Both the position numbers and the translations under genes were made by a program. A stretch of 64,000 nt of DNA, taken from NCBI GenBank assembly GCA_902614235.1, contig CACMKG010000004.1, forward strand, positions 1-64,000, in the 5' to 3' direction. The notes under the pieces are model-generated. The model saw only the letters and a program-made list of their open reading frames with translations. It had not been told where the DNA came from and ran no database searches. This DNA is from an uncultured SAR86 cluster bacterium (GTDB taxonomy: Bacteria; Pseudomonadota; Gammaproteobacteria; Magnimaribacterales; AG-339-G14). Shown one piece after another: positions 5,161 through 14,602 of this stretch. The stretch's first letter is position 1; every line of letters begins with the position of its first letter.

Positions 5161-5964
5161 TTAACTAGATGGAATTTGTCCAGTATTATAAGAAATTACA
5201 TCTTGACATGAAGCTACTTCATCAAAAGCTGCTTGGATATTTGGCGCTTTTGCTAAAAAGTTAGCATTTCCTTCTGCTCTTTTTTCGACTGTCTGATGAA
5301 AATCTCCCCATATGAAATCAAATTCTTCTGTTTCATAATCAGGTGCTAGCACCATAAATCCATATGGAGCGTCAATATTTTCGTCTGAATCTAACCAAGC
5401 ATCAAAACTATCAATTGATGAAATTAGTTCATCTGCACCTTGTCCTTCATTGTATGAACAGGCCATATAATTTGAATTAAAGTTAGTTCTATCAAACTCG
5501 CCCAACGAGTCAACATCTCTTCTCATGTAAGCATCAAAAGAAAAAGTATCCTCTTTATTTCCGCAAACTAAAATGTTGCTTGTTTCCTCACTCCACTCTG
5601 CTGTTTTTTCATACCCGGCCCAAGTAGCCCAACCTTCTTCAGCATCTTCTTTTGAATTCCAAACAAGTTGCCAATAGCCATCTTCTTCAGCATCCTCGGG
5701 TTTACTCTCGTAGCCGAGGCCATATGCAGCAACAATTGTTGAATCAACCTCTACCAAAAGACTCTGCCAGCCGGGAAGCATGTCCTGAGCGAAGGCTTCT
5801 GGAGAATAGTCAGGTCCTAATTCACAAGGGATATATTCCACATAAAACTTTTGGGGGTAATTTTCTGAACCTAGTTCAGAATATGTTGGAGTTGACTCGC
5901 TGCTGCAAGCAACAATAACTCCTAGTAAAGCAACGAGTGTTGCTATTTTTATATTTTTTTTCAT
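5161..5964 (-). CDS. Hypothetical lipoprotein with two tandem related modules
   Basis: The ORF track starts at 6027, but the ATG at 5964 is preferred. It has a good ribosome site (aaggagag) 8 bases upstream and begins a clean lipoprotein signal MKKNIKIATLVALLGVIVAC. The mature protein is acidic and rich in Trp, Tyr and Asp. It appears to hold two copies of a roughly 100-residue module. Copy one runs from YIPCELGPDYSP through YWQLVWNSKED to NILVCGN. Copy two runs from MACSYNEGQG through FDFIWGDFHQT to VASCQDV. Each copy has Cys near both ends, a Trp-containing strand in the middle and a helix with Ala/Gly. I do not recognise the family and assign no function; the location is probably the outer or inner membrane facing the periplasm. 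Confidence 0.7.
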   Translation of the reverse strand: MKKNIKIATLVALLGVIVACSSESTPTYSELGSENYPQKFYVEYIPCELGPDYSPEAFAQDMLPGWQSLLVEVDSTIVAAYGLGYESKPEDAEEDGYWQLVWNSKEDAEEGWATWAGYEKTAEWSEETSNILVCGNKEDTFSFDAYMRRDVDSLGEFDRTNFNSNYMACSYNEGQGADELISSIDSFDAWLDSDENIDAPYGFMVLAPDYETEEFDFIWGDFHQTVEKRAEGNANFLAKAPNIQAAFDEVASCQDVISYNTGQIPSS

Positions 5965-6023
5965 TTTTCTCTCCTTTGAAAAATTTATAAGGACATTAAC
6001 ATTAGTAGATTTCTGATCTTTCT

Positions 6024-6887
6024 TCAAATCTTAATAGTTTCTTTTATTTTCTCTTTGAGTTTTTCTAAATGTGGATTGTCTTTATTTGAAAATATTTCAT
6101 TCAATTTTTCTTCATGATCTCTAAAATCAAGGATCCCTTTTTTATAACTATTTCTAGCTTTTAAATTTTTCCAATAAGCCTTAATTTTAGGAAGCTCCGG
6201 CATTTCCAGTACTGAATCAAGCCTCAAATCTTGCAATCTATAAAAGCAACACATTAGATTGATATCGGCATGGCTAAAATCACCGAATAAAAATCCATTT
6301 TCTGGTAAGTTGTTTTCGAGCTCTAATATTCCTTGCACAAAACCCTTGTATGCAAGAGGGCCAACTCTATCTTTAAGCGACGAGAAATACATAGTTACGA
6401 AAGCAATTTTTCTTTCCCTGCGAGGATGTCTAAGAATAATATTCCATATGGCTCTATAACTCAGTTTTTTTATTAAAGTCTCTATCAAACTCATAGAGAA
6501 AAGTGGAATGGTGGTTCCTAAAGTTTTTCCCATTGGGACGCCTTCTGTGATGGTGGTATCGTAAACCCAACTTCTTAATTCTTCCCGATTTGCCTCGTCT
6601 TTTGGCCAGAGATTTATATTATTTTCTCCTTCTAGATCGTCTAATCTTTCAATAATATAGGCACTGTCTCTGACTATTTCATCGTTGATTTTCAATACAG
6701 GAACCACCCCCGTTGGATTGATATTTTTAAGGTAATCTTTGGTAATGTTCTCTGCTTCTTCATAGTGATCACATAATTTAATTGGAACATGATCAAATTC
6801 GAGCCCCTTTTCAAATAGTGCAACTCTTACCATTTGGCTACAAAGTGACCAATTGGCATGATAAAGAGTAAGTTTTGGTTTCGTCAT
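6024..6887 (-). CDS. Glutathione S-transferase family protein
   Basis: A 287-residue protein. The N-terminal thioredoxin-fold domain begins KLTLYHANWSLCSQMVRVAL (residues 4-23), with Ser/Cys at the usual GST active-site position, and continues to the conserved NPTGVVPVL (cis-Pro, about 57-65) and a glutathione-contacting D-S pair (RDSAYI). The all-helical C-terminal domain (about 90-280) is longer than usual. It is probably cytosolic and glutathione-dependent; the window also encodes gshA. The substrate is unknown. It lies upstream of the lipoprotein gene in the same direction with about 60 bases between them. Confidence 0.8.
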   Translation of the reverse strand: MTKPKLTLYHANWSLCSQMVRVALFEKGLEFDHVPIKLCDHYEEAENITKDYLKNINPTGVVPVLKINDEIVRDSAYIIERLDDLEGENNINLWPKDEANREELRSWVYDTTITEGVPMGKTLGTTIPLFSMSLIETLIKKLSYRAIWNIILRHPRRERKIAFVTMYFSSLKDRVGPLAYKGFVQGILELENNLPENGFLFGDFSHADINLMCCFYRLQDLRLDSVLEMPELPKIKAYWKNLKARNSYKKGILDFRDHEEKLNEIFSNKDNPHLEKLKEKIKETIKI

Positions 6888-8403: not shown

Positions 8404-9927
8404 TTGAATCATAATTTACCAATACCTAGCTTATTAGACATCGCGATAAAAAAAGGCGAAGGCATTCAGGTAAAAAATGGTGCTTTTGTTGTCACTACGG
8501 GTAAAAGAACTGGTAGAAGTCCAGCAGATCGATTTTTAGTTGACGATGCTTTGACACATGGTGTTGTCGATTGGGGCGAAAACAACCAACCAATAGAAGC
8601 TGAAAAATTCTTAAACCTTTGGGATGAATCCGAAGAGTACCTTAAGGGTAAAGATAAATATACAGCCGATCTCCATGTTGGTGCCAGCATGGAACATTAC
8701 CAGCCGGTAACTATTGAAAATGAATACGCCTGGCAAAATATGTTTTGTCAAAGCTTGTTTATTCAAACGGAATCTTTCAACCCTAAATCAAAAGATGTTT
8801 GGCAGCTTAGATCTGTTCCAAGCTTCAAATGCGATCCTAGTCGCCATGGAACAAATTCCGATGGAACAGTAATGATCAATTTTTCAACAAAACAGATCTT
8901 AATCCTTGGAATTGGTTATGCAGGAGAAATGAAAAAATCGATGTTTGGGATTATGAATTTTATTCTTCCTGAAGAAGATGTCTTATCGATGCACTGTGCA
9001 GCAAATGCTGGAAAAGATGGCGATGTGTCATTATTTTTTGGACTTTCAGGTACTGGAAAAACAACTCTTTCAGCAGATCCTGACAGATGGCTAATTGGCG
9101 ACGACGAACATGGTTGGGGAGACGGAATTGTTTTTAACATTGAAGGTGGATGCTATGCCAAAACTGTAGACCTATCTCAAAAAAATGAGCCAGTCATTTG
9201 GAACGCAATAAAAAATGGCACAATTTTGGAAAATGTAATTTTTGATCCTAACAGTTTAGAAGTAGATTACACCGATCAATCTTTAACTGAAAATACCAGG
9301 GCTTGTTATCCTCTCAGTCACGTTGATCAACATTTAGAAAAAAATTATGGAGGCGAGCCGCAAAATATTATCTTTTTAACATGTGATCTATCCGGAGTGA
9401 TGCCACCAGTTTCAATATTGTCTAAAGAGCAGGCTGCCTATCATTTTTTAAGTGGTTACACTGCAAAAGTAGGCTCTACTGAATTAGGATCGACTGAAGA
9501 AATATCTTCAACTTTTTCAAACTGTTTTGGTGCACCATTTTTCCCTAGAAGAGCTCAAGTTTATGCAGATCTATTAATGAAAAGAATTGAAGGCTTTGGT
9601 AGCAAAGTTTATATAGTAAATTCTGGTTGGACTGGTGGCTCTTATGGGGTTGGAGAAAGATTCAACATTCCAACTACTCGAAATATTATTAAAGCAATTC
9701 AGTCAGGGTCTATTGAAGAAAGTCCAAAATCTAAACTCGACATTATGAACGTAGAAATTCCTACGGAGCTAGAAGGTGTAGAAACTAAAATTTTGAATCC
9801 ATCTGAAACTTGGTCTGATCAGGGCCTCTATAAAAAAGCAGCTGAAGATTTGGCGATTAAGTTTAATGACAACATCTCTAAATTTGAAGTAACAGACGAA
9901 ATCCTTGCTTCTGGCCCTTCTACCTAA
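8404..9927 (+). CDS. pckA: Phosphoenolpyruvate carboxykinase (ATP)
   Basis: Converts oxaloacetate plus ATP to phosphoenolpyruvate and CO2, the first step of gluconeogenesis, in the cytosol. The substrate-binding region TTGKRTGRSPADRF (about 30-43), the P-loop-like kinase-1a motif GLSGTGKTTLSADP (about 211-224), the metal-binding IGDDEHGWGDG and GGCYAKTVDLS are all intact. The 507 residues are slightly short of the usual 520-540. The start is TTG with a purine-rich agagagaaga just upstream; an in-frame stop (taa at 8374) rules out a longer ATG start. The enzyme suggests growth on organic acids or amino acids. Confidence 0.95.
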   Translation: MNHNLPIPSLLDIAIKKGEGIQVKNGAFVVTTGKRTGRSPADRFLVDDALTHGVVDWGENNQPIEAEKFLNLWDESEEYLKGKDKYTADLHVGASMEHYQPVTIENEYAWQNMFCQSLFIQTESFNPKSKDVWQLRSVPSFKCDPSRHGTNSDGTVMINFSTKQILILGIGYAGEMKKSMFGIMNFILPEEDVLSMHCAANAGKDGDVSLFFGLSGTGKTTLSADPDRWLIGDDEHGWGDGIVFNIEGGCYAKTVDLSQKNEPVIWNAIKNGTILENVIFDPNSLEVDYTDQSLTENTRACYPLSHVDQHLEKNYGGEPQNIIFLTCDLSGVMPPVSILSKEQAAYHFLSGYTAKVGSTELGSTEEISSTFSNCFGAPFFPRRAQVYADLLMKRIEGFGSKVYIVNSGWTGGSYGVGERFNIPTTRNIIKAIQSGSIEESPKSKLDIMNVEIPTELEGVETKILNPSETWSDQGLYKKAAEDLAIKFNDNISKFEVTDEILASGPST

Positions 9928-11531: not shown

Positions 11532-11544
11532 AAAGGAGAAGTTG

Positions 11545-12519
11545 ATGAAGGCATATGTTTGTAGAGAATTTGGACCGGTTGAATCTCACAAGGTTGAGGA
11601 AATAGAGGATCCTAGAGCAGAGGCCGGCCAAGTTGTGGTTGATGTAAAAGCAGCAGGAGTAAGCTTTCCTGACGTTTTAATTGTCCAAGGAAAATATCAA
11701 TTTCAACCTCCTTTTCCCTTTTCTCCAGGAGGAGAAATTGCAGGTGTCATTAGTGAAGTTGGCGAAGGGGTTGTCGATTGGAAGGTTGGAGATCGAGTGA
11801 TTGCGATGACTGGAAATGGTGGAATTGCTGAGAAGGTAGTGGCTTTTGAAATGACTTTGATGCCGCTTCCAGAAACAATGGATTTTAAAGACGGCGCAGC
11901 ATTTCCTCTTAACTACGGAACTACTTATCATGCTTTAAAACAAAGAGGTCAATTGCAGCCTGGCGAAACTCTCCTTGTCACGGGCGCAGGAGGAGGAGTT
12001 GGCACGACAGCAATTGAAATTGGAAAGGCGATGGGAGCGAAAGTAATTGCCGCTGCTAGTACCGAAGAAAAATTAGAAATCGCTAAAAACCTTGGCGCTG
12101 ACGAAACAATAAACTATAGCGATGGTGAGTTAAAAGAAAAAGTAAAGGCTTTAACCGATGGCTTAGGAGCAGATGTTATTTACGATCCAATTGGCGGAGA
12201 TATTTTTTTACAATGCATGCGATGTGTAAATTGGAAAGGCAGAGTATTAGTAATTGGCTTTGCAAGTGGGCCTATCCCTGAAGTACCAACAAATTTAGCA
12301 TTATTGAAAGGATGTTCTATCGTGGGTGTTTTTTGGGGAAGATTCACAGGCGCAGAGCCAGAAGAAAATTCAAAGAACTTTGATGAATTATTTGCTCTTC
12401 ACGCTGAAGGCAAGCTCAAACCACAAATCACTAAAAGCTATTCTTTAGATGATGCGGCGGAAGCGATATCGTCCTTAGAAAACAGAAAAGCTACTGGAAA
12501 AGTTGTAATAGAGATGTAA
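11545..12519 (+). CDS. NADPH:quinone oxidoreductase / zinc-less MDR-family reductase
   Basis: Medium-chain dehydrogenase/reductase, quinone-reductase branch. The GroES-like N-terminal domain has VKAAGVSFPDVLIVQGKYQ, and the Rossmann domain has the nucleotide motif GAGGGVGTTAIEIGKAMGAK (about 145-164). The catalytic zinc ligands of classical alcohol dehydrogenases are absent, as expected for this branch. The ATG at 11545 is preferred to the TTG at 11542; both sit behind a good aaaaggag ribosome site. Probable cytosolic NADPH-dependent reductase of quinones or enones; exact substrate unknown. A strong terminator follows immediately. Confidence 0.85.
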   Translation: MKAYVCREFGPVESHKVEEIEDPRAEAGQVVVDVKAAGVSFPDVLIVQGKYQFQPPFPFSPGGEIAGVISEVGEGVVDWKVGDRVIAMTGNGGIAEKVVAFEMTLMPLPETMDFKDGAAFPLNYGTTYHALKQRGQLQPGETLLVTGAGGGVGTTAIEIGKAMGAKVIAAASTEEKLEIAKNLGADETINYSDGELKEKVKALTDGLGADVIYDPIGGDIFLQCMRCVNWKGRVLVIGFASGPIPEVPTNLALLKGCSIVGVFWGRFTGAEPEENSKNFDELFALHAEGKLKPQITKSYSLDDAAEAISSLENRKATGKVVIEM

Positions 12520-12546
12520 AAAAAGGAGGCTTTTGCCTCCTTTTTT
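12518..12546. terminator. Bidirectional rho-independent terminator
   Basis: The stem ggaggc / gcctcc with a tttt loop is flanked by an A-run and a T-run. It separates the quinone reductase gene (+) from the convergent three-paralog membrane-protein cluster (-) and can serve both. Confidence 0.9.
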
Positions 12547-12551
12547 AGTTT

Positions 12552-12968
12552 TTACTCTTTAGGCTCTGGTGCCATCCATGTAGGCACTAAAAGGCTTATT
12601 AGGATAACAAGAAAAAATATTATCGCAATTGGGTCTGCAGGGATAAGAGAGAACTCAGGAAGTTCAGATCCTCCACCAAAAAAATCTACAAGCTGCTGGC
12701 TTGCTGGTGAAATTGTCTCTAATTGAGCTAAATTATATGCAGTTGTTTGCTGTAAATTATTTAACAGGCCTAAGACAAAAAGATTAAAATAAACTACCGT
12801 AAGCGAGAACAAAGAGGATAATACTTTTTGTACAACATTTGCTCCCATATCAGTAATTCTATTTACTCCTCTAAAAGCCATCCACAATAGAAACACGAAA
12901 GCGGCAAAATAAATTGCGTTACTTATTAATGAGCTATTGAATAAAGCTAGTATTTGATATTCTTCCAT
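12552..12968 (-). CDS. Three-helix membrane protein, paralog 1 of a tandem family
   Basis: A 138-residue hydrophobic protein of no family I recognise. Predicted membrane segments lie at about 15-33, 48-70 and 113-130. It shares with the next two upstream genes a first helix ending in FLLWMAFRGVN, a second beginning KVLSSLFSLTVV, and a loop with LETISPASQQLVDFFGGG. It has an excellent ribosome site (aggagg) in front of its ATG, better than most genes here, which hints at strong expression. It is last in the cluster, 9 bases downstream of paralog 2, and ends at the shared terminator. Function unknown; inner membrane location inferred. Confidence 0.75.
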   Translation of the reverse strand: MEEYQILALFNSSLISNAIYFAAFVFLLWMAFRGVNRITDMGANVVQKVLSSLFSLTVVYFNLFVLGLLNNLQQTTAYNLAQLETISPASQQLVDFFGGGSELPEFSLIPADPIAIIFFLVILISLLVPTWMAPEPKE

Positions 12969-12977
12969 TTTTTCCTC

Positions 12978-13379
12978 CTATGCCTTAGTCCAAATTCTTC
13001 CAAACAGCATGACAGTGATAACTGCCCACCAACCTGTGTTGATTGGATTGCTAAAAGGTCCAGCATCAAAACTAACTGAGCCTGTTCCAAAAGTTTCGAC
13101 AAAATTTTGTGCTCCCGCACTGATCACTTCAAGTTCATCAAAACCATAAGCAGTACTCTCTAAGATACTCAAAAAAGCGGCTCCTAAAGTTAAACCATTA
13201 AAGATAATTCCTAAGCTAAATAACGACACTAGAGTTTTATTTAAAACTCCCGAATCTTCTATTCTGATTTGATTAGCAGCTCTAAATGCGACCCAAAGCA
13301 GAAAAAAAGTTCCAGCTTGAAAAAGAGCGTTTTGAGTTAATCCTCCGTTTAACGCAGTCCATAATTGATATTCATTCAT
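12978..13379 (-). CDS. Three-helix membrane protein, paralog 2 of a tandem family
   Basis: A 133-residue membrane protein clearly related to paralog 1: it starts MNEYQLWTALN against MEEYQILALFN, then FLLWVAFRAANQ, LVSLFSLGII and ELEVISAGAQNFVETFGTG line up with the same segments there. Three membrane helices are apparent. The ribosome site is ggagaaa. It sits between a hairpin on its 5' side (after paralog 3) and paralog 1, so paralogs 2 and 1 may be expressed by read-through or at a lower level. Function unknown. Confidence 0.75.
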   Translation of the reverse strand: MNEYQLWTALNGGLTQNALFQAGTFFLLWVAFRAANQIRIEDSGVLNKTLVSLFSLGIIFNGLTLGAAFLSILESTAYGFDELEVISAGAQNFVETFGTGSVSFDAGPFSNPINTGWWAVITVMLFGRIWTKA

Positions 13380-13405
13380 ATTTTTCTCCCATATTGTTGA
13401 ACATA

Positions 13406-13437
13406 AAAGAAAGGAAACTTTAAATTCCCTTTCTTAA
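13406..13437 (-). terminator. Hairpin between paralogs 3 and 2 (terminator or attenuator)
   Basis: On the minus strand, aagaaaggga and tcctttctt form an imperfect stem separated by an A/T-rich loop and followed by a short T-rich stretch. It lies just after the stop codon of paralog 3 and could reduce transcription of the two downstream genes or stabilise the upstream message. Confidence 0.5.
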
Positions 13438-13445
13438 AAAATTTG

Positions 13446-13856
13446 TTATTTTCTTGGTGCCCAAATTAAGGACAAAATCATTAAAGTAACAATCACGCAA
13501 AAGGCTATTCCCAAAGGCGTGGGCATTCCTGTTGCTTCAGTTGTGCCGACATAATCTATGAAAGCTTGAGCGCCGATTGGGTCTCCAGTATTTTCAGGAC
13601 CTATTTCTGTAAGCCTTCTTGCAAAAGTTACCCAAGTGTTGGAAGCAAAGCCAAATGATTGAAATGTTCCAGCCATTACTGTAAGACCAAATGCACTTGA
13701 TACTATTTTTGTAATAAGATTGCTATCAGGATTCTCTCCCGTCATATTGGCTACCCTTAAAGCCAACCAAATTGCAATAATTACCCCTATAAAAGTTAAC
13801 GCGTCTACAATTCTTCCATTCTGAAAGGCCTGTAAAGCTGTATTTGCTAAATCCAT
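13446..13856 (-). CDS. Three-helix membrane protein, paralog 3 (first gene of the tandem family)
   Basis: A 136-residue protein, the most diverged of the three but with the same layout: first helix ending IAIWLALRVAN, second helix KIVSSAFGLTVM, a loop with TEIGPENTGDPIGAQAFIDYVG, and a third helix near the C-terminus ending IWAPRK. The ribosome site gggagag precedes its ATG. It is the promoter-proximal gene; a Fur-type palindrome overlaps its promoter. The SCO1 gene of the cytochrome oxidase locus lies just upstream on the same strand, about 100 bases away. No known family is recognised. An iron- or redox-linked membrane role is an inference from context only. Confidence 0.75.
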   Translation of the reverse strand: MDLANTALQAFQNGRIVDALTFIGVIIAIWLALRVANMTGENPDSNLITKIVSSAFGLTVMAGTFQSFGFASNTWVTFARRLTEIGPENTGDPIGAQAFIDYVGTTEATGMPTPLGIAFCVIVTLMILSLIWAPRK

Positions 13857-13879
13857 ATTTCTCTCCCGTATGTATTTAA

Positions 13880-13911
13880 TTGAGAATAATTCTCAAAAAA
13901 AACTATATCAA
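13880..13911 (-). promoter_or_regulatory. Promoter overlapped by a Fur-type operator
   Basis: On the minus strand TTGATA (13906-13911), a 17-base spacer and TATTCT (13883-13888) make a sigma70-like promoter 27 bases before the ATG of paralog 3. Overlapping the -10 is the perfect palindrome TTGAGAATAATTCTCAA (13880-13896). It contains the 7-1-7 repeat TGAGAAT-N-ATTCTCA, which differs from the Fur consensus TGATAAT-N-ATTATCA only at one symmetrical position per arm. Operator position over the -10 would suit repression by Fe-Fur. Binding is inferred. Confidence 0.65.
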
Positions 13912-13954: not shown

Positions 13955-14602
13955 CTAATTTGAAAATTTTATGACACTTTCCAATGCTTCAGCCATCATC
14001 TCAGGAGAATATGGTGTTTTGAAAAAACCATGATATTTACCGGAAGGATCAATCAAAGCCAAGTTCATACTATGATCCATATCGTAGTCTTTATTTTTTG
14101 AATCAATCACCGGTGTGAATGGCAGAGTTAAATTTAATGAAAGCTGATAAATATCCTTAATATTTCCAGAAACTCCCTTAAATTCCTTATTAAATGCTTT
14201 GGCGTATTCGTTTACCCTTTCAGGGCTGTCTCTATCAGGATCTATAGAAATCATTACAAAGTTTATTTTTTCTATGAGTCCCTCTTTCTGCGAAAGCATT
14301 TGAGCAGTTTTTGCCATCTTTTGCATAGTCATTGGACACATGTCAGGGCAAGAAGCAAAACCTAAAAATACCAAGTCCCACTTGCCTTTAAAGTTAGCCT
14401 CGGTAAAAGGTTTGTCATTTTCATAAAGAGAAAAAGCATTTAAATCTCTTTTGGTATTCAGTTGATAGAATTTCAGTAACTTGTATTGATCGTTGGTAAG
14501 CTCTTTTTCTGCTACCGTGCTGTAAACAAAAAGCCCTATAACCATTGACACGATGGCCAGACAAGAAATAACTGTATAGGTAATGCCTTTATTTTTTGTC
14601 AT
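13955..14602 (-). CDS. SCO1/SenC family copper chaperone for cytochrome c oxidase
   Basis: A 215-residue protein with an N-terminal membrane anchor (about 9-28) and a periplasmic thioredoxin-fold domain. The copper-binding motif CPDMCPMTMQKM (about 84-95) and the distal His in DYDMDHSMNLAL (about 172-183) are present, as in SCO proteins that help load the CuA site of subunit II. It is last in the oxidase assembly cluster, 4 bases downstream of ctaB. A second, SCO-like protein lies further upstream (16472-17050). Confidence 0.9.
   Translation of the reverse strand: MTKNKGITYTVISCLAIVSMVIGLFVYSTVAEKELTNDQYKLLKFYQLNTKRDLNAFSLYENDKPFTEANFKGKWDLVFLGFASCPDMCPMTMQKMAKTAQMLSQKEGLIEKINFVMISIDPDRDSPERVNEYAKAFNKEFKGVSGNIKDIYQLSLNLTLPFTPVIDSKNKDYDMDHSMNLALIDPSGKYHGFFKTPYSPEMMAEALESVIKFSN

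What the first reader, a model, noticed from the sequence alone, without database searches (positions are those of the whole stretch)
12552..13856. Three tandem paralogous membrane proteins of no recognised family
Three genes of 133-138 codons share the same three-helix plan and aligned motifs (LLW-x-AFR-x-xN in helix 1, K-x-x-x-S-x-F-x-L in helix 2, then an I-x-x-x-AQ-x-F/LVD-x-x-G loop), so they are duplicates that have diverged. Each has a strong Shine-Dalgarno site, rare in this genome. Tandem triplication in a streamlined genome suggests a hetero-oligomeric membrane complex.
Basis: partly seen in the sequence, partly recalled or inferred. Interest (0 to 1): 0.75.

Follow-up and report, generated by a model that had tools for sequence, protein, structure and literature searches.

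The report
Iron-regulated array of small membrane proteins
In SAR86, one of the commonest ocean bacteria, a small cluster of interchangeable three-helix membrane proteins of no known family sits behind what looks like the same iron-sensing DNA switch as its siderophore receptor and iron permease, so it is probably an undescribed part of how these cells cope with iron shortage.

Summary
Three tandem minus-strand genes (138, 133 and 136 codons) encode divergent paralogues: B–C 36%, A–B 24%, and A–C joined only through a profile. They form a confident three-helix fold with no match in Pfam, NCBIfam, PHROGs, PADLOC or PDB, and the family appears confined to the SAR86 order (145 of 203 genomes).

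In the window's family the same site, always between SCO1 and a quinone-oxidoreductase gene, holds 1–4 genes drawn from about eight paralogue types in different combinations. Types are exchanged between genomes yet kept under purifying selection (omega about 0.06). Other SAR86 families carry dispersed singletons or pairs.

The main new result is a perfect 7-1-7 palindrome, TGAGAATAATTCTCA (13881-13895), just upstream of the first gene and over a promoter-like site. It is conserved in 27 of 31 arrays of three genera and recurs at unrelated loci in a second family. The same kind of site precedes TonB siderophore receptors, FTR1, an iron-type ABC binding protein and a ferritin-like gene. In this genome the only other perfect match precedes a TonB receptor next to FTR1. 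The array therefore most likely belongs to the Fur regulon. Its biochemical role in iron handling remains inferred.

The parts
13446..13856 (-). gene A, 136-aa three-helix membrane protein, first gene of the array
   Evidence: ORF; AF2 pLDDT 88.5; type A clade
12978..13379 (-). gene B, 133-aa paralogue
   Evidence: ORF; 24% to A, 36% to C; AF2 pLDDT 92.7
12552..12968 (-). gene C, 138-aa paralogue, last gene of the array
   Evidence: ORF; 36% to B
13881..13895 (.). Fur-box-like 7-1-7 palindrome TGAGAATAATTCTCA, operator of the array
   Evidence: perfect match; only one other perfect TGAKAATNATTMTCA in the 1.09 Mb genome, upstream of a TonB receptor; conserved in related arrays
13883..13911 (-). 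promoter-like site TTGATA-17-TATTCT overlapped by the palindrome
   Evidence: consensus scan; weak evidence alone, but the ATATAG...box segment is conserved
13863..13867 (-). Shine-Dalgarno GGGAG of A
   Evidence: sequence
13386..13390 (-). Shine-Dalgarno GGGAG of B
   Evidence: sequence
12974..12979 (-). Shine-Dalgarno AGGAGG of C, overlapping the stop codon of B
   Evidence: sequence
13407..13435 (-). terminator-like hairpin between A and B; could make A the most transcribed gene
   Evidence: 13-pair stem plus T tail; inference
12519..12546 (.). symmetrical terminator-like hairpin between the array and the convergent quinone-oxidoreductase gene
   Evidence: 12-pair stem, T run
13955..14602 (-). 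SCO1-like gene: constant upstream flank of the array (boundary, not part of it)
   Evidence: same flank in related loci
11542..12519 (+). quinone-oxidoreductase gene: constant downstream flank (boundary, not part of it)
   Evidence: same flank in related loci

Best explanation
The array is a Fur-repressed operon of SAR86-specific inner-membrane proteins made when iron is scarce. Fur-Fe binds the palindrome over the promoter; iron loss opens it together with the TonB siderophore receptor and the FTR1 permease, and strong ribosome-binding sites give high yield. Each protein is a three-helix hairpin with the N-terminus outside and C-terminus inside, an amphipathic segment between helices 2 and 3, and a conserved W/R/K/W cluster at the cytoplasmic membrane face. 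I propose that they assemble, as homo- or mixed oligomers of interchangeable types, into an inner-membrane accessory of iron acquisition (passage or handling of ferri-siderophore or released iron behind the TonB receptor), the types differing in substrate or partner. Shown: genes, homology, monomer fold prediction, operator conservation and sharing with iron genes, type turnover, purifying selection. Inferred: Fur binding, iron induction, topology, oligomers and the transport role.
For: Perfect palindrome at 13881-13895. In 1.09 Mb the looser Fur consensus TGAKAATNATTMTCA has two perfect matches: this one, and one upstream of a TonB receptor (Plug and barrel) next to FTR1, which itself has a one-mismatch box at -25. 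A matrix built only from iron-gene boxes scores 15.5-24.5 in 27 of 31 arrays of genera g1-g3 (null 99.9% = 15.1; best other window gene 6.0), with 3 degenerate boxes (G029, G036; G001). The box stands out in the aligned intergenic region. The same boxes precede TonB receptors, FTR1, an iron-type ABC binding protein and a ferritin-like gene in relatives. Family f2, at other loci, also has the box, in G538 between divergent copies. One FUR-family protein is encoded. SAR86 TonB transporters for Fe-ligand complexes are upregulated in iron-stressed seawater (PMC11069385).
Against: No direct evidence of Fur binding, expression or transport. Genus g4 arrays (0 of 8) and the dispersed f3/f4 copies lack the box, so iron control is not universal and the core activity may be broader. 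The family has no iron-permease REXXE motif and no conserved His, Cys or acidic residue in its helices, so a direct iron-binding channel is unlikely. It is not physically next to iron genes. AF2 was run on monomers only.
Confidence: 0.5

Rival explanations
1. Iron-sparing remodelling of respiration: the proteins are made under iron shortage and modify or stabilise the heme-copper oxidase or another membrane complex whose assembly genes lie next door.
For: In the window's family the array always abuts the SCO1-cyoE-ctaA cytochrome oxidase assembly cluster, and the operator is Fur-like.
Against: In families f2-f4 the genes lie elsewhere, never beside oxidase genes in the loci examined. The array has its own promoter region and terminator. 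No heme or copper ligands are conserved.
Confidence: 0.18
2. Immunity-like array: small membrane proteins protect against pore-forming bacteriocins or similar toxins that enter through siderophore receptors, and are induced together with these receptors; discrete types match discrete toxins.
For: Combinatorial repertoires of discrete types, exchange between genomes at a fixed site, Fur-type control shared with TonB receptors; known E1-type colicin immunity proteins are also small three-helix inner-membrane proteins (own knowledge).
Against: Nearly universal in the order (35 of 40 good genomes), which is unusual for immunity genes. No toxin gene seen beside it. No PADLOC match. Purifying rather than diversifying selection within types.
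Confidence: 0.12
3. General membrane-structural proteins (lipid or scaffold role) whose expression in f1 and f2 was secondarily put under Fur; the iron link is only regulatory.
For: Copies without a Fur box in f3, f4 and g4; the conserved residues are interfacial W/R/K rather than catalytic.
Against: Does not explain independent presence of the box at unrelated loci in f1 and f2, or type exchange.
Confidence: 0.17

Closest known systems
Fur regulon of Gammaproteobacteria (TonB receptor, FTR1, Fe ABC transporter genes)
   Same: same 7-1-7 operator overlapping the promoter; shared with these very genes in SAR86
   Different: the regulated proteins belong to no known iron-uptake family
FTR1 iron permease (PF03239)
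   Same: Fur-type control in the same genome; inner membrane
   Different: FTR1 has a seven-helix fold with REXXE iron-binding motifs; the new family has three helices and no such motif
DUF3325/DUF3649-type small membrane proteins of TonB-receptor operons (recalled from memory)
   Same: short multi-helix inner-membrane proteins under iron control
   Different: neither was listed for any member in the Pfam scans; not adjacent to receptors here
ExbB/TolQ/MotA proton-channel proteins
   Same: three membrane helices, oligomeric partners of iron uptake (ExbB)
   Different: ExbB is much larger with cytoplasmic domains; only low-scoring, non-significant fold hits
E1-type colicin immunity proteins (recalled from memory)
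   Same: about 110-140 aa, three membrane helices, exchangeable specific types
   Different: no toxin partner, near-universal in the clade, purifying selection; homology not tested

Membership tests
Fur regulon | operator matching the 7-1-7 Fur box near the promoter | tested here: met
   perfect TGAGAATAATTCTCA at 13881-13895 overlapping a promoter-like site
Fur regulon | same operator controls known iron genes in the lineage | tested here: met
   TonB receptor and FTR1 in own genome; also an iron-type ABC binding protein and a ferritin-like gene in relatives
Fur regulon | genome encodes a Fur protein | tested here: met
   one PF01475 protein, 144 bits
Fur regulon | iron-dependent binding and derepression | not testable with these tools
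   needs EMSA/ChIP or transcriptomics
FTR1 iron permease | PF03239 match and REXXE motifs | tested here: not met
   one member at E 0.047 only, far below cut-off; no conserved acidic residue in the helices
ExbB/TolQ/MotA | Pfam/NCBIfam match or clear structural match | tested here: inconclusive
   not among the Pfam or NCBIfam matches listed; TolQ and PomA chains appear only among non-significant Foldseek hits
Known anti-phage defence proteins (PADLOC) | HMM match | tested here: not met
   best E 0.015 in single members
Pore-forming colicin immunity | neighbouring cognate toxin gene | tested here: not met
   no other gene inside the f1 g1-g3 arrays
Pore-forming colicin immunity | protection phenotype | not tested
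   requires an experiment
   1-4 genes in varying combinations; singletons elsewhere

The most novel reading that the evidence does not exclude
A new class of inner-membrane iron or ferri-siderophore import device, built by combining interchangeable three-helix subunits from a Fur-controlled cassette array that SAR86 cells swap between genomes to tune which iron sources they can use.
Probability: 0.22. Interest if true: 0.85.

Novelty: new variant of a known kind. Interest (0 to 1): 0.62.

Why it matters
SAR86 is among the most abundant bacteria of the surface ocean, and iron stress of marine heterotrophs has been reported in situ (PMC11069385). How iron crosses the inner membrane in SAR86 after TonB receptors and FTR1 is not described in the sources read here. 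A near-universal, unannotated membrane protein family placed by its operator in the Fur regulon gives a testable missing component and a possible iron-stress marker transcript. The fixed chromosomal site with swappable paralogue types is also a clean example of modular gene exchange in a streamlined genome.

Tried and rejected
Pfam, NCBIfam, PHROGs and PADLOC scans of single proteins and alignments gave only scattered sub-threshold matches. The PDB profile search gave a best E of 0.007 to photosystem I PsaB residues, judged chance. Foldseek against PDB and BFVD gave nothing significant; VIA-align Z of about 9 to generic helical bundles is uninformative. Phage origin: no relatives in IMG/VR for two queries. 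Wider distribution: the only hits outside the order are marginal and partial, judged chance. A first profile drifted into the glutamate-cysteine ligase gene because one contig (G032) has a fused ORF; discarded. The second near-match of the palindrome in this genome (C7:5527) lies inside a coding gene and was rejected. Diversifying selection: not found. The SAR86 isolate paper does not mention the family in the passages searched.

Full report
WHAT IS THERE. The window lies in a 1.09 Mb SAR86 genome (close relatives are titled SAR86). On the minus strand, between an SCO1-like gene (13955-14602, part of the cytochrome oxidase cluster) and a convergent quinone-oxidoreductase gene (11542-12519), lie three genes A (13446-13856), B (12978-13379) and C (12552-12968). 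B and C share 36% identity (E 6e-24), A and B 24% (E 2e-5); A and C connect only through the profile. Relatives make one coherent family of 118 non-redundant sequences in the loci fetched.

STRUCTURE AND CONSERVATION. AlphaFold2 gives B as helices 3-41, 45-81, 88-97 (short, amphipathic by sequence) and 112-130 with mean pLDDT 92.7; A folds the same way at 88.5. No significant match exists in PDB or in viral models. The near-invariant residues are W29, R33, K48 and W130 (B numbering), with N common at 44. R33 and K48 frame the short loop between helices 1 and 2, and lysine or arginine follows W130, so by the positive-inside rule the N-terminus is outside, the loop and C-terminus inside, and the conserved cluster sits at the cytoplasmic face. 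This topology is inferred.

DISTRIBUTION. With a 48-sequence profile, 145 of 203 genomes of the order match at E <= 1e-4 (35 of 40 of good quality). Among 369 genomes drawn across the class, only the four members of the order match convincingly; three others have marginal partial hits. Among 398 genomes across the phylum, only the window genome matches convincingly, plus one marginal partial hit. No relatives were found in IMG/VR with two queries. The family is therefore SAR86-specific as far as tested.

ARRAY DYNAMICS. In the window's family (f1) the array always sits between the same two genes, with nothing else inserted in three of four genera. Among 38 loci with both flanks seen, 3 hold one gene, 16 two, 15 three and 4 four. 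Genes fall into types A, B, C, D, E, F and M1-M3 (assigned by best match to reference members), and genomes hold different combinations in a conserved order with A, where present, first. Some types are far more similar between genomes than the flanks: for G012 and G024, types M3 and E are 98% identical at DNA level (92% at fourfold sites) while the flanks are 76-80% (37-46% at fourfold sites). C of this genome is 86% identical to C of G428 in another genus, against 63% and 77% for the flanks. Most pairs do not show such excess, so exchange is recurrent but not constant. Within types dN/dS has a median of 0.06 over 40 pairs (flanks 0.02-0.03): the types are stable and constrained, not diversifying. 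Families f2-f4 carry one or two, mostly dispersed, copies in other contexts. These facts speak against an obligate A:B:C complex.

REGULATION. Upstream of A is the perfect 15-bp palindrome TGAGAATAATTCTCA at 13881-13895. It is a variant of the 7-1-7 heptamer model of the Fur box, TGATAAT (PMC12838400). It overlaps a promoter-like TTGATA-17-TATTCT. In the whole genome the consensus TGAKAATNATTMTCA has only two perfect matches: this one, and one with neighbouring partial boxes in front of a TonB-dependent receptor. The FTR1 permease gene just before that receptor has a one-mismatch box 25 bp from its start (Pfam identities). In related genomes the same motif precedes TonB receptors, FTR1, an extracellular solute-binding protein resembling ferric-iron ABC systems, and a ferritin-like gene. 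A matrix built only from those iron-gene sites scores 15.5-24.5 for 27 of 31 arrays in genera g1-g3, while the 99.9% quantile of shuffled upstream regions is 15.1 and the next best gene in the window scores 6.0. Three more arrays have a degenerate box (G029 and G036; G001, whose start had been called too far upstream) and one has none. The aligned intergenic region shows the box, with an ATATAG segment just before it, as the conserved island. The motif recurs in family f2, where the genes lie in unrelated surroundings; in G538 one perfect box lies between divergent copies. It is absent in genus g4 and in the f3/f4 copies examined. The genome encodes one Fur-family protein. Together this makes Fur control of the window array very likely (about 0.85), though not shown by experiment.

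EXPRESSION SIGNALS. Shine-Dalgarno sites of at least 4 nt occur in 85% of family genes against 31% of window ORFs. A terminator-like hairpin lies between A and B and another after C, so A may be expressed most.

MECHANISM. The most economical reading is a set of iron-starvation-induced inner-membrane proteins that serve iron acquisition behind the TonB receptor. SAR86 TonB transporters for iron-ligand complexes are reported as upregulated in unamended, iron-stressed incubations (PMC11069385), and SAR86 genomes are rich in siderophore-type receptors (PMC11582366). The interchangeable types would then differ in substrate or partner. No conserved metal ligand is present, so I expect a lipid- or protein-contacting accessory or a passive pore rather than an iron-binding permease. 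Rivals are respiratory remodelling (neighbourhood of oxidase genes, but only in f1), immunity against toxins that enter through siderophore receptors, and a general membrane role with secondary iron control.

LIMITS. Genomes are mostly single-cell or metagenome assemblies; start codons are mechanical; f1-f4 and g1-g4 are the tool's anonymous family and genus labels; no expression data and no complex prediction were available.

Noticed in passing
L056, L059, L061, L062, L063, L065, L067, L069, L071 (f2/f3 loci around the family gene): Dispersed family copies in other SAR86 families repeatedly lie next to genes for secreted ~230-250-aa proteins of several clusters (by eye two-repeat ferredoxin-like or DABB-type); a relative of one is at window 5161-6027.
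   Followed up: partly
L060, L066, L068, L071: In family f3 one copy sits just upstream of the histidine operon (a small TrpR-like gene, hisG, hisD and following genes), in conserved synteny.
   Followed up: no
L128, L130, L132 (upstream of the pckA homologue of window 8404-9927): Genus g4 genomes have a near Fur-box palindrome TGAGAATAATTCTTA about 60 bp before phosphoenolpyruvate carboxykinase, while their arrays lack it.
   Followed up: no
L163:2523-4762: A NosD-like parallel-repeat protein gene and a companion lie divergently upstream of FTR1 and the TonB receptor in this genome; similar pairs stand divergent to the iron ABC binding-protein gene in L137 and L140.
   Followed up: no
L088, L090, L091, L092, L093, L094, L074: In genus g4 extra genes (104-aa, a small lipoprotein, a 439-aa protein) are inserted between SCO1 and the array, in varying sets.
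   Followed up: partly
L110:1951-3351: In G032 a glutamate-cysteine ligase ORF is fused in frame to a fragment of a family gene, probably an assembly chimera or deletion.
   Followed up: partly
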